64,000 bases of DNA from Alphaproteobacteria bacterium (GTDB taxonomy: Bacteria > Pseudomonadota > Alphaproteobacteria > ATCC43930 > CGMCC-115725). The position numbers and the translations under genes were made by a program. Below the pieces are notes generated by a model that saw only the letters and a list, made by a program, of their open reading frames with translations, ran no database searches and was not told the origin of the DNA. Positions 52,381 through 59,162 of this stretch are shown piece after piece (position 1 is the stretch's first letter; the number at the start of each line of letters is the position of its first letter). The stretch spans positions 34,980 to 98,979 of the forward strand of contig JAGWNF010000011.1 of the NCBI GenBank assembly GCA_028871455.1. The letters run 5' to 3'.

Positions 52381-55285
52381 AAATCAATATCGATTCAATC
52401 GCGCTCGACGCACATGGCGATGCCCATGCCGCCGCCGATGCAGAGCGTGGCGAGGCCCTTCCGGGCGTTGCGCTTGCCCATCTCGTAGAGCAGCGTGACC
52501 AGGATGCGCGTGCCCGACGCGCCGATCGGATGGCCGAGCGCGCTACGCCGTATTCCAGTTCCGCCTCAGGCTCGTATGCCCCGACATACGATTGCTCCTC
52601 CCATCGATTGGCTTCCTTGCCGATATTGATGATGGATTGAACCTGCACGTGCCGGCGCCGTGTTGTGCTGGAGTCGCAATAGTCGGCATTCAGGAATTTT
52701 GATTCCGGGCGGAGATGGTATTGCGCTAGGACATCGGCATATGTCCGTAGCATGCTCGCTGGCACCGGCTTGCCGCTGTCGCGGTCGAAACACCGCGTCG
52801 CGGCCTTGGCTGCGTCGCGATCATAGGGCGCGATCACACACGGCGGCTCGCCATCGGCTGGCTCCAAGCCATTCGCCGCCCGCCACGCTTCCCAATCGGC
52901 AGTCGGATCCGCCTGGAGCATATCCATGAATCCGAATGGCCGGACCTGCTCGGCGTAGGGCTTGTCTCGGTTATAGCTCTCGAAGCCATCCAACAGGTGC
53001 GGCGTTGTCGCACTGTACTGCGTGACGGCCGGCCGATCGAAATTCGGCAGGATCGAGAAGTCCGGTTGATCTGGATGGCCCTCGAATACGGCGCGGAGGA
53101 TGCAGCTCCAGACGCAGTATTGCCAAGGCTTGACGCCGATCTCATCGACCATCTCTTTGAGGGGCACAGCCGGCGGCGGAAAGCCGGGTGGGATGTCATC
53201 AAATGGCGCCAGCAAATGGCCCAGGCCATGGGCGGTGGCCTTGCGGATGATCGGCTGACCGTCGGCACCGATGTTGAACAGGACATAGCGCTTGGAAGAG
53301 ATCGCGTAGCAGCAAAGCGGCTCCAGCTCCTTGGTGGTTTTGCCGTTGACGATGCGGAAATTCACGTCCTCCAGCTTGAAGAGCTGCACCGGCACAGCAT
53401 ACGGATTGAGCGTATCGAACCACGTCCGCACCGACTCAGCCCGGCGATAGAACTCGGGGTTGTCCATACCGGCGGGCTTGGCGATCGCCATGCTGTCGGT
53501 ATCGCAGAAGGCCCAATCGAGCCCGGCGTCAAAGACCAGCCGTTCGGTGATTGCCAGCATCAGGCGGGCTGCACTGGTAATGAGCGTGCCCAAGAGCGGG
53601 TGAAAGAACTCGCCCGGCTGCTCCACTTTGTCCATATCGACCAGGAATTCCCGGCCGGTAGCGGGGTAACAGTGAACGGCGACCCGCTCGGCCAGTTCCT
53701 GCACGTCCTGCTGTACGAAGATTCCGTAGCCCACCGAATTGGCGACAAGCTTGAGCACCTTTTCGTCCTGCTCGTTGCTTTGTTTCCGCAGTTCGATGAG
53801 CCGCTTGAAGAAATCCTCCTTGAGCGGATCAACGCGAAATTCGGGGTTGCCGGCGATCGTGACCGGCCGCAAACCGTCCTGTGGCCCTTTGGGCTCGAAC
53901 GCGATGGCCCTAATGATCTTAGGCGCGCTGCCCGTGATCAGCTTCGAGGCGATCACGTCTGGCAGCGCGTACCAAAAAGGCTGGTCAGAACTGAGGTGGT
54001 TGAGCCCGATAGTATAGTGATCCTTTCGTCCGTCTAAAGGCGACGGCTCGTAGCGGTATTTCGTGCGAACCGGCAGCACGTCGCCATCGGGCTCGATTTG
54101 CACGATGACGTGGAGCCGGCGCCAGGTCTCCGGCTTTTGCAGATCGGCCAGAGTGATGCGCTCCACAAACGCCCGCGTTTCGGCCGTAGCATCATGCCAC
54201 GTCACGCCCTTTGCGATGACGAAGCGCCATAAGCCCATCAACGTCGAAACACTTGTGTAGTCAGAAGTGAAGTCGAAATAGAGGATCTGGTTGGATAACC
54301 GGCGCTGGTGCACCTCGGTCCGCCCGCCGAAATACCCGCCCATGATCTTGCCAAGCAATGCTGGTGGGAAATCCGGCTGCATCCCACGCCAGCCGCGCAC
54401 GCCGATCTCGCGGAGATAACCCTTGCCGATGCTGGCTTCACTGAAAATGCGGTGTACGGGGGTTTGCGTCAGCCCGTGGACTGCTAACCGGCGGCACAAC
54501 TCGACAAAACACTCCCACGTCACCTGCACGTCCTGGATCGCGTAGTCGAGATATTCAGGCTTCAGCTCCTTGCCGTGATCATCGCTGTCGAGCTTGCGAT
54601 GTTCCGTTTCTAACTTCTCGGCAAGCGTGCGCAGGCTGAATGTTTGGCTGAGCAAGGCGTGGGCCAGCGTCGCGACGTCCACGAAAGCCGGCCGACGTCG
54701 CGGCGCCTCGACCTTACGCTTAACCTGTCCGCGCGGGAGGCGCTGGCCAGGGCCCGAGAATTCCATGAGGCAGGCGCGTGAGATGTGCTTGATGCGGACG
54801 CGCGGACCTTTCTTGTCTGGCCTGGTCTCAAGACTGAAGCCGGGGCGCATCTTGCCGCGCGTGTGCGAATGCCCTTCGGCAATGCGCGATAGGTCAAACG
54901 CGATGTGGAAGCCGATCGTAGTTGCCTGCCAGTGATAGCCGACACGGATGAATATGTTTTCGCGGAAGTCCCGTAGCGTTCTCAGCTTGATCCGCTTGTC
55001 GGTCGCGTATTGCTCAACCAGTCGAACCTCTGTTGGCGTCAAGGCGTCGGGATTGAAGAACAGCCCTCGCTCGCGGAGTTTTTCACCTTGCCGTAGCTGA
55101 TAGGCCCCGACTCGCAATCGTTGGGCTGCATCGGTCGTGGTCTCGCAATCGAAGACCAAGAATGTTTGAGATGGTCCGCGTGCCGAGAATTCGAGCCGTG
55201 GTGCCCGCTTGCCTTCGCGCACACCATAGGCCCGAACCGCGATCGGCAGAACGTCGGTGATTGGTGGTGCTGAACGACTAGTCAT
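52331..55285 (-). CDS. Family-B DNA polymerase with 3'-5' exonuclease (casposon-type PolB)
   Basis: Numbered from ATG 55285, the exonuclease has Exo I FDCET (D46, E48), an Exo II-like GFHIAFDL (about 126-132, His in place of Asn) and Exo III YAIQD (248-252). The polymerase has motif A YFDFTSDYTS (about 337-346), motif B KLVANSVGYG (512-521), motif C DTDS (595-598) and a later KRY. All catalytic acidic residues are present. The last ~70 residues (from about 52,540) are read from the phaA remnant and intergenic DNA, so the natural C-terminus is lost. It overlaps the HNH gene as ATGA. Confidence 0.88.
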   Translation of the reverse strand: MTSRSAPPITDVLPIAVRAYGVREGKRAPRLEFSARGPSQTFLVFDCETTTDAAQRLRVGAYQLRQGEKLRERGLFFNPDALTPTEVRLVEQYATDKRIKLRTLRDFRENIFIRVGYHWQATTIGFHIAFDLSRIAEGHSHTRGKMRPGFSLETRPDKKGPRVRIKHISRACLMEFSGPGQRLPRGQVKRKVEAPRRRPAFVDVATLAHALLSQTFSLRTLAEKLETEHRKLDSDDHGKELKPEYLDYAIQDVQVTWECFVELCRRLAVHGLTQTPVHRIFSEASIGKGYLREIGVRGWRGMQPDFPPALLGKIMGGYFGGRTEVHQRRLSNQILYFDFTSDYTSVSTLMGLWRFVIAKGVTWHDATAETRAFVERITLADLQKPETWRRLHVIVQIEPDGDVLPVRTKYRYEPSPLDGRKDHYTIGLNHLSSDQPFWYALPDVIASKLITGSAPKIIRAIAFEPKGPQDGLRPVTIAGNPEFRVDPLKEDFFKRLIELRKQSNEQDEKVLKLVANSVGYGIFVQQDVQELAERVAVHCYPATGREFLVDMDKVEQPGEFFHPLLGTLITSAARLMLAITERLVFDAGLDWAFCDTDSMAIAKPAGMDNPEFYRRAESVRTWFDTLNPYAVPVQLFKLEDVNFRIVNGKTTKELEPLCCYAISSKRYVLFNIGADGQPIIRKATAHGLGHLLAPFDDIPPGFPPPAVPLKEMVDEIGVKPWQYCVWSCILRAVFEGHPDQPDFSILPNFDRPAVTQYSATTPHLLDGFESYNRDKPYAEQVRPFGFMDMLQADPTADWEAWRAANGLEPADGEPPCVIAPYDRDAAKAATRCFDRDSGKPVPASMLRTYADVLAQYHLRPESKFLNADYCDSSTTRRRHVQVQSIINIGKEANRWEEQSYVGAYEPEAELEYGVARSAIRSARRARASWSRCSTRWASATPGRASPRSASAAAWASPCASSAIESILISSCPDLFRASTPSRRG
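52395..52548 (-). pseudogene. phaA: 3' end of phaA (acetyl-CoA acetyltransferase), cut by an insertion
   Basis: The frame ending at TGA 52,395 encodes only the thiolase C-terminus: ALGHPIGASGTRILVTLLYE and CIGGGMGIAMCVER, with the catalytic His of GHP and the catalytic Cys of CIGGG. Just upstream, where GGAI normally precedes ALGHP, the sequence becomes the polymerase gene. The remaining ~340 codons are not in the window and may lie beyond its right edge. Confidence 0.85.
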
Positions 55286-57925: not shown

Positions 57926-59162
57926 CTCAACCATCGAAGCCGCAATTGCCGGTCGCAATAATAGCCCGCAATCGAGATCATATTCAGGTCGGTCGAAATT
58001 AACTAAGTCGAATGGACAATCATCCGATCATTCCGTTCAATCAGATGATCAATCAGCCGTTCATTCCGATCATGATGATCGTTCATGGGCCGATCGATCG
58101 GATTTCTGGCTCCAGAAGATCACCCCGAAGTCCCGTCAATTCGTGAAACGGGCTGGAATTGCCGAACCGCTCATTTTGACCGGCCATGGCGTCAGCCTGC
58201 GGATCGATCACGGCAGTCTCTTGGTCCGGAATGGCTTTACCCATTACCCGCAGGATCGGGAGGAATGGCGGTTCTTTTCCGGCGATTGGCGCCTACCGTC
58301 GCGGATTGTCCTGCTCGACGTGGACGGCGGAATTTCATTTGACGCATTGGCATGGCTCGGCACTCGCCAGATTCCCATGGTGCAAATCAATTGGCGGGGT
58401 GAGGTGACCAATATCGTCTGCATGATCGGGACGGCCGTGAGTACCAAGCTGGCCGAGCGCCAGAGGGCGGCCCGCGCCGGCAGGCAATGCGTTCGCATTG
58501 CCCACGACCTGATTACTCAGAAGGTGGCCAATAGCATCGCGACATTGCGATCAGCATTCCCGAATTCGCCAGTTGCTAAATCGGCACTCAAAAAGCTCAA
58601 CGCTGAATTGGCTGATCTTGGGCGCCGGGTTCCTCCGTCGGTCGGCCAATTAAGGGGTATCGAGGGCCGAGTGGGATACGCGTATTTCAATGCATGGCGG
58701 TCGCATTCACTCAATTGGTCAAACACGAAGCGCCATCCTTTCCCCGATGATTGGTATCGGATCGGACCCCGATCATCGAAAGCCGGCAAAATCTCCAATC
58801 CCAACCGCTTTGCTACACATCCTTTCAACGCGATGCTCAATTACGCCTATGGCGTGCTCGAAACCCAAGTGCGCCGCCAGATCGTGGCCTCGGGTCTGGA
58901 CCCGGCATTCGGGTATCTCCATGGCAGCTACAGCGGCAAGCAAGCGCTGGTCTATGACCTGATGGAGCCATTACGGCCGGTCATTGATCGGCAGGTGTTG
59001 GAATTCGTGCAGCACCAGAGATTCGAACCGGCGGACTTCGTGCTTTTGGACGATGGCGTATGTCGGCTCAATCCGCAGCTGGCTCGAAATATCGTTCGAG
59101 CGATCGACGTTTCAGGCGACGCTCAGAAATGCCTCGGCCGGTTCGTTCGTTCGCTGAATTGA
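57915..59162 (+). CDS. cas1: Solo Cas1 integrase (candidate casposase)
   Basis: A 415-residue Cas1. Residues 1-60 form a Ser/Asp/His-rich extension. The beta domain (about 85-175) and alpha domain (about 180-400) carry the metal ligands E250 (RGIEGRVGYAYF), H336 (FGYLHGSYSGK) and D348/E351 (YDLMEPLRP). All are intact, so DNA integration activity is likely. No cas2, interference genes or repeat array are nearby; instead a PolB and an HNH nuclease are, which marks a casposon. AAAGGGA precedes the ATG. Confidence 0.93.
   Translation: MLRSSTIEAAIAGRNNSPQSRSYSGRSKLTKSNGQSSDHSVQSDDQSAVHSDHDDRSWADRSDFWLQKITPKSRQFVKRAGIAEPLILTGHGVSLRIDHGSLLVRNGFTHYPQDREEWRFFSGDWRLPSRIVLLDVDGGISFDALAWLGTRQIPMVQINWRGEVTNIVCMIGTAVSTKLAERQRAARAGRQCVRIAHDLITQKVANSIATLRSAFPNSPVAKSALKKLNAELADLGRRVPPSVGQLRGIEGRVGYAYFNAWRSHSLNWSNTKRHPFPDDWYRIGPRSSKAGKISNPNRFATHPFNAMLNYAYGVLETQVRRQIVASGLDPAFGYLHGSYSGKQALVYDLMEPLRPVIDRQVLEFVQHQRFEPADFVLLDDGVCRLNPQLARNIVRAIDVSGDAQKCLGRFVRSLN

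What the first reader, a model, noticed from the sequence alone, without database searches (positions are those of the whole stretch)
52549..59162. Candidate casposon in an alphaproteobacterium
A solo Cas1 with complete catalytic residues, a family-B DNA polymerase with intact exonuclease and polymerase motifs, and an HNH nuclease lie in one 6.6-kb block without cas2, effector cas genes or a repeat array. That is the defining gene set of casposons, the Cas1-mobilised elements thought to be ancestral to CRISPR adaptation. The three other proteins look new to me.
Basis: partly seen in the sequence, partly recalled or inferred. Interest (0 to 1): 0.95.

Follow-up and report, generated by a model that had tools for sequence, protein, structure and literature searches.

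The report
Broken casposon; its kin target palindromes
A bacterial genome holds part of a casposon, a jumping element built around the Cas1 enzyme and thought to be an ancestor of CRISPR memory; this copy is likely broken, but relatives with both ends in other bacteria are mostly flanked by duplicated short palindromes, in several genomes of a kind present in dozens to hundreds of copies, so these elements likely home in on palindromes much as CRISPR does on its repeats.

Summary
In detail: 52543-59162 carries a solo cas1 with its catalytic residues, a family-B polymerase gene, an HNH nuclease and three small genes; the genome has no cas2 and no second cas1. The Cas1 groups with Cas1 of cas1-polB islands, including those of Henriciella and Nitrosomonas, genera of published family-3 casposons, not with CRISPR Cas1. 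But this copy looks like a relic: polB runs into the tail of a second phaA copy at 52,542/52,543, losing its C-terminal HTH, and motif A is altered where 19 of 19 relatives agree. No terminal inverted repeat is found in the window (the method recovers 15 of 15 ends in left-out loci). Casposons in alphaproteobacteria are known, so the relic alone is modest. The news is in relatives: 12 have both ends, 10 of them target duplications of 14-23 bp, 9 of these palindromic. In the 8 genomes whose target fits a countable pattern it is a dispersed palindrome of 28-240 copies, against 0-5 for the reversed pattern. My open-access searches show no report of this.

The parts
57915..59162 (+). cas1-solo (predicted casposase), 415 aa
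   Evidence: Pfam 1.6e-41; best solved relative 6opm (M. mazei casposase, as recalled for that entry; its depositors write Cas1), E 9.4e-22, or 1.5e-38 with the family profile; tree
52543..55285 (-). family-B DNA polymerase, cut at its 3' end (C-terminal HTH part lost), motif A altered
55282..55869 (-). HNH endonuclease, stop codon overlaps the polB start
   Evidence: HNH relatives in 29 of 49 loci
55918..56238 (-). degenerate HNH-like paralogue, 106 aa
   Evidence: aligns to the HNH family but has lost E107, the first H of the HH pair, C98 and H128
56257..56817 (-). casposon HTH protein, C-terminal domain conserved, N-terminal winged helix not recognisable in this copy
   Evidence: fold of the relative L019
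56889..57668 (-). 259-aa protein, unplaced
   Evidence: relative in 1 of 49 loci; single-sequence model pLDDT 40, no use
52399..52542 (-). 3' remnant of a second phaA (thiolase) copy, 94% identical to the phaA on contig C13: left break of the relic
51471..52193 (-). phaB of that second copy (host gene, flank)
59336..60397 (+). ParA-like ATPase; not shown to belong to the element
60390..60992 (+). HEPN-domain protein next to ParA; not shown to belong to the element

Best explanation
The block is likely a truncated, inactive remnant of a bacterial casposon of the Henriciella/Nitrosomonas kind, whose two-ended relatives carry GGGGTATAG-type terminal inverted repeats and are mostly flanked by duplicated palindromes, so that their Cas1 would insert the element symmetrically about a palindrome. 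Shown: gene set and order, Cas1 placement, polB running into phaA, altered motif A, no terminal repeat found; in relatives the terminal repeats, the duplications and their palindromic symmetry. Inferred: that Cas1 is the integrase (shown in vitro for archaeal casposases), that PolB copies the element, that the HNH and winged-helix proteins help in end processing or target recognition, and that palindromes are chosen because they lie in harmless, often multi-copy places. In the window the element would have lost its left end by a break into phaA (or the assembly joined the two there), and no right end is found before the contig ends.
For: Cas1: solo, closest solved protein 6opm; in a 52-row group (SH-aLRT 95) with cas1 of islands from Henriciella, Nitrosomonas, Sphingomonas and others, while 21 of 22 other Cas1 rows (13 of these 21 with an array in their locus) and 4n06 lie outside. 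PolB+HNH+Cas1 together in 28 of 49 related loci, +HTH protein in 22 (many loci are cut by contig ends). A genome of the same family as the host (G009 = L019) holds a two-ended 15.2-kb element with a 15-bp palindromic duplication. Relic. Ends and targets: 12 two-ended loci, duplications of 14-23 bp in 10, palindromic in 9; stems scoring 6 or more outside 20 of 48 ends against 3.1% of random and 3.7% of shuffled stretches; dyad centre at -8/-8.5 from the repeat; 11 of 30 sites with 6 or more of 7 pairs there against 121 of 12000 and, outside long ORFs, 96 of 12000; target palindrome in 28-240 copies per genome against 0-5 for the reversed pattern in the 8 genomes whose target fits a pattern.
Against: No terminal repeat or duplication in the window, so membership of the intact class cannot be shown for this copy. 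The basal split between casposon and CRISPR Cas1 is weakly supported (31) and 6opm is a long branch. Target palindromes are not universal: L020, L022, L024, L028, L032, L042, L044, L050, L053 and L089 show little or none (L023/L026 is weak), and L052 has no duplication. The tested palindrome patterns are not enriched in the genomes of L048, L035, L029 and L036. PolB tails vary in relatives (57-146 residues beyond the break, 79 in P0123), so the size of the loss is unsure. The right limit of the relic is unknown. The left junction could be an assembly join.
Confidence: 0.86

Rival explanations
1. A complete, mobile casposon lies here and its ends are just outside what was read: the left end is hidden by an assembly join at 52,543 and the right end lies beyond the contig end.
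For: The contig ends 4.8 kb after cas1, and in two-ended relatives the right end lies 0.1 (L035) to 8.2 kb (L028) after cas1; the phaA/phaB piece is a second copy 94% identical to C13, as a strain mix could give.
Against: Motif A of the polymerase is altered at two positions kept in 19 of 19 relatives, and the HTH protein has no recognisable HTH, so the copy would likely still be damaged.
Confidence: 0.15
2. Cas1 is a detached adaptation gene of a CRISPR system, the neighbours being chance.
For: Cas1 is shared by both kinds of system; the protein passes the generic CRISPR cas1 model TIGR00287.
Against: No cas2, one cas1, no array in the window; recurrent PolB/HNH company in relatives with terminal repeats and duplications; tree.
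Confidence: 0.02
3. The palindromes beside relatives' ends reflect only that insertions lie between genes, where palindromes are common, not a choice of palindromes.
For: Family 3 casposons are described as intergenic (PMC6614799, introduction passage); about ten of 32 sites have no clear palindrome.
Against: Positions outside ORFs of 150 or more codons give 96 of 12000 at the same threshold against 11 of 30 sites, and the dyad is centred on the duplication.
Confidence: 0.1

Closest known systems
Family 3 casposons (HenMar-C1, NitAL212-C1; Krupovic et al. 2014, PMC4046053)
   Same: Bacterial hosts, solo Cas1 without extra domains (as HenMar-C1), PolB, HNH and a conserved HTH protein; relatives from Henriciella and Nitrosomonas in the same Cas1 group
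   Different: Window copy has lost its ends and part of polB; palindromic, multi-copy targets are not described in the parts of that paper that I read (sections 7 and 9, passages)
Archaeal casposons with experiments (A. boonei, family 2; M. mazei)
   Same: 6opm is the closest solved structure; A. boonei integration duplicates 14-15 bp (PMC6614799 passage)
   Different: A. boonei uses a site at a tRNA-Pro gene and family 2 Cas1 has a C-terminal HTH (PMC6614799, PMC4046053)
CRISPR adaptation modules (Cas1-Cas2)
   Same: Cas1 family; insertion that duplicates a (commonly palindromic) repeat
   Different: No cas2, no array, no other cas genes here; the inserted unit in relatives is a 10-15 kb element
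REP/BIME palindromes of bacteria (recalled)
   Same: Targets of several relatives are dispersed, often paired palindromes in 28-240 copies
   Different: Here they are landing sites; no link to TnpA-REP was tested, nor whether all copies lie between genes

Membership tests
casposon | stand-alone cas1 with catalytic residues | tested here: met
casposon | polB in the same island | tested here: met
   present but cut short and with altered motif A
casposon | terminal inverted repeats | tested here: not met
   none in the window: best nhmmer hit E 5.9, while profiles without the tested locus recovered 15 of 15 ends in 10 loci; the right end may lie beyond the contig; 12 relatives have them at both ends
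casposon | target site duplication | tested here: not met
   ends are missing, so none can be seen; 10 of 12 two-ended relatives have 14-23 bp
casposon | Cas1 in the casposon part of the Cas1 tree | tested here: met
   (quick tree, 76 rows; the basal casposon/CRISPR split itself is weak)
family 3 casposon | HNH nuclease | tested here: met
family 3 casposon | conserved HTH protein | tested here: inconclusive
   C-terminal half conserved, HTH half not recognisable in the window; that this is the HTH protein of the 2014 paper was not tested
family 3 casposon | Cas1 and PolB cluster with the published family-3 sequences | tested here: inconclusive
   same genera (Henriciella, Nitrosomonas) are in the clade, but the published accessions themselves were not in the tree and no PolB tree was made
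CRISPR-Cas | cas2 and repeat array | tested here: not met
   no cas2 in the genome, no array in the window; arrays elsewhere in the genome not searched
casposon | mobility | not testable with these tools
   no experiment; the copy is predicted inactive

The most novel reading that the evidence does not exclude
A large bacterial casposon clade, of which the window holds a relic, lands on palindromes: its Cas1 cuts symmetrically about the dyad of REP-like repeats and terminator hairpins and duplicates the whole palindrome, so each insertion makes a palindromic repeat-insert-repeat unit of CRISPR architecture. CRISPR repeats would then be palindromic because their Cas1 ancestor already read palindromes, and REP-like repeats would be the raw material of the first arrays.
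Probability: 0.5. Interest if true: 0.88.

Novelty: new member of a known kind. Interest (0 to 1): 0.62.

Why it matters
Casposons are the proposed source of CRISPR adaptation, and where the palindromic CRISPR repeat came from is an open question. A clade of bacterial casposons whose target duplications are mostly palindromes, often from a dispersed repeat family, makes that question testable with one purified casposase and a plasmid carrying one palindrome. It also supplies an end model (GGGGTATAG[TC]GATA...) with which bacterial casposons can be delimited automatically, and two-ended elements in named strains (Henriciella pelagia LA220, L047; Microvirga antarctica 3D7, L028, the latter without a palindrome) for experiments.

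Tried and rejected
Right boundary by ParA: I asked whether ParA/HEPN is casposon cargo. Of 6876 ParA relatives 120 were listed; read by eye, apart from the window's own contig their contig lengths do not recur in the Cas1/PolB listings (one length, 8333, does, but from different sources). ParA is found in 1 of 49 related loci, outside that element's ends, HEPN in none. Left out of the element; weak evidence, not proof.

Empty site: 28 of 29 Henriciella-group genomes (L047's own included) match the right flank of L047; of the 11 others examined one (G052) also has left-flank DNA without the element, but the intergenic DNA is too different to show a clean empty target. For L035 no other genome of the genus is held. 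For the window, the stretches fetched around the copies of the 44.5-46.4 kb gene in G035, G036 and on contig C7 show no homology to the low-GC block: island, but no exact site.

Circular form: four loci (L026, L033, L040, L044) have two ends face to face over one target copy; the contig ends of L033 and L040 do not overlap, so tandem insertion or circle stays open.

Plasmid or phage carriage: no PolB match in 72,556 plasmid and 50,697 phage records. Cas1 matches 87 plasmid records, 30 listed: 28 are annotated as cas1, two (a Nostoc and a 121-residue piece in Bradyrhizobium) carry no annotation. Viral contigs: one weak locus. A first genome scan with the window's Cas1 alone found nothing.

Rows dropped before counts: one search kept 80 of 265 confirmed loci. 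40 clade loci were scanned for ends with a matrix built from their own GGGTATAG sites; 32 gave at least one end that I accepted by score and orientation, 8 (L034, L038, L045, L046, L049, L051, L065, L079) gave none; L021 and the Nitrosomonas-type loci L054, L057-L064 and L066 were left out. Searches use 30 sites (L026 repeats the site of L023; L052 has no duplication). In one search the printed label of the centre range is half a base off: the centres used are -8.5 to -7. The palindrome patterns were written after seeing the targets.

Papers: PMC4046053 (passages, sections 7 and 9), PMC6614799, PMC10359463, PMC9966878, PMC9939771 (passages only); others seen as search listings. That palindromic or REP targets are not in print rests on searches in an open-access library; subscription papers on casposon mobility and all supplements were not available.
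Full report
WHAT IS THERE. The window is G000:C23:34980-98979 and runs to the end of that contig (contig length). At 52543-59162 lie, on the minus strand, polB, an HNH nuclease gene overlapping its start, a 106-aa, a 186-aa and a 259-aa gene, and, divergently, cas1. Pfam recognises Cas1 at 1.6e-41 and PolB only weakly (E 0.0026, below its cut-off). There is one cas1 in the genome, no cas2, and no array in the window. GC is 0.56-0.60 in the block against 0.66 in the first 46 kb.

DESCENT. The closest solved protein is 6opm, the M. mazei casposase (name recalled; E 9.4e-22; 1.5e-38 with the family profile). Database searches gave 1619 Cas1 and 1537 PolB relatives among the 7997 candidates scored in each; 15 contig lengths recur in both top-120 listings (for example 58386, 20013, 26256, 13397, 19856, 15688, 141404, 235966). 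A scan of species genomes with the family alignment found 265 loci, of which 80 were kept. Among L018-L066, 39 of 49 hold PolB, 29 HNH, 26 the HTH protein, 28 PolB+HNH+Cas1 and 22 all four, in one layout: polB-HNH-HTH against a divergent cas1. In a 76-row tree the window Cas1 is in a starred 10-row group with nine metagenomic relatives, inside a starred 52-row group with Sphingomonas, Henriciella, Microvirga, Methylocystis, Acetobacteraceae, Thermomicrobiales and Nitrosomonas Cas1s. Of 22 other Cas1 rows 21 lie outside with 4n06, 13 of them with an array in their locus; the 22nd, L064 of Edaphobacter, is next to the clade and has a weak PolB match. The split at the base is weak and 6opm is a long branch, so I claim the clade, not the root.

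THE WINDOW COPY IS A RELIC. The polB frame is open, but from 52542 down it reads the tail of a thiolase gene in another frame: 52399-52542 is 94% identical to the 3' end of the phaA on C13, next to a phaB copy (51445-52210) also 94% identical to C13. The nearest aligned PolB relatives run 125-146 residues beyond this point (P0121, P0122, P0124, P0128, P0129), one only 79 (P0123), with HTH domains listed for most of the nearest; more distant ones run 57-71. Motif A is DFTSDYTSV in the window and DF[TL]SMYP in 19 of 19 relatives. The 186-aa protein keeps only the C-terminal half of its family in recognisable form, and the 106-aa protein is an HNH-like copy that has lost several HNH-motif residues. 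A profile of 46 relatives' ends finds nothing in the window (best E 5.9), while profiles built without the tested locus recover 15 of 15 ends in 10 loci. A pattern scan of the whole genome found one match with one mismatch, as many as the reversed control. I therefore do not file the block as an intact casposon; it is casposon-derived. Whether the phaA junction is a deletion in the cell or an assembly join cannot be told here.

WHAT TWO-ENDED RELATIVES SHOW. Inverted-repeat searches around related loci and a pattern scan revealed a shared end, GGGGTATAG[TC]GATA. Twelve loci have both ends, 10.1-15.2 kb apart. Ten have exact direct repeats of 14-23 bp just outside (L018, L019, L028, L029, L030, L035, L036, L043, L047, L048); L022 has 9 bp and L052 none. 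Nine of the ten are palindromes with G+C-rich arms (all but L028), e.g. CCCCCCTTGATGGGGGG, CCGCCCGTTCGGGCGG, CCCCGGCCTGCGCCGGGG. Outside 48 accepted ends in 32 loci, stems scoring 6 or more occur at 20, against 3.1% of random and 3.7% of shuffled stretches. Over 30 sites the mean pairing peaks with the dyad 8-8.5 bases from the repeat, the middle of a 16-17 bp duplication; 11 of 30 have at least 6 of 7 pairs there, against 121 of 12000 random positions and 96 of 12000 positions outside long ORFs. L035 and L029 sit in hairpins followed by T-runs, i.e. terminator-like by eye. In other hosts the palindrome is a dispersed repeat: CCCCGG[AC]N4[GT]CCGGGG occurs 193, 71 and 125 times in the genomes of L027, L043 and L056 (and 47 in that of L034, whose ends I did not find), reversed control 0; CTCCCCN2-10GGGGAG occurs 240, 85, 28, 29 and 28 times in those of L030, L041, L047, L018 and L019, control 1-5. 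Against: the second pattern is not enriched in the genomes of L048, L035 and L029, nor the first in those of L030 and L036, whose own targets have other arms or loops; and about ten of 32 sites show no clear palindrome, half of them in hosts outside the alphaproteobacteria by title.

KNOWN AND NEW. Casposons, bacterial family 3, its HNH and HTH proteins and intergenic location are known (PMC4046053 sections 7 and 9; PMC6614799 introduction passage); tandem casposons are too (PMC10359463 passages). I found no mention of palindromic or REP targets in the listings or the passages read; non-open papers and supplements were not available. So the window adds a relic to a known kind; the palindromic targeting of its relatives is what deserves follow-up.

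Noticed in passing
window 46435-46503 and 63521-63589: Direct repeats (83% identical) with a palindromic core CTCTCCGACAACGGAGGGGGA bracket the 17-kb low-GC stretch that holds the relic; four matches in the genome, the two and a reverse piece of the second included.
   Followed up: partly
window 51445-52542 and G000:C13: Second phaB with truncated phaA, 94% identical to a phaA-phaB pair on C13; the 44.5-46.4 kb gene also has a 92% second copy on C7. Duplication or strain mix.
   Followed up: partly
window 59336-61975: ParA-like ATPase followed by a HEPN protein and a 297-aa protein with a weak HORMA match (E 6.7e-4); may be a defence module.
   Followed up: no
L026 14724-14742, L033 10907-10926, L040 8466-8484, L044 655-673: Two casposon ends face to face over a single target copy: tandem insertion in CRISPR-like fashion, or a circular form.
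   Followed up: partly
L055 2057-2123: Two right-end repeats 66 bp apart in the same orientation, each preceded by a hairpin: array-like leftovers of repeated insertion.
   Followed up: no
L061 12442-13969: A CRISPR-like array of about 26 repeats lies 5 kb from a casposon-type cas1 in Nitrosomonas sp. Nm166.
   Followed up: no
L019 2853-3346 and 17618-18111; L020 739-1134 and 12850-13245: Very long inverted repeats that reach into the polB 3' end.
   Followed up: no
window about 33212-38642: Terminase- and portal-like genes by eye: prophage or gene transfer agent.
   Followed up: no
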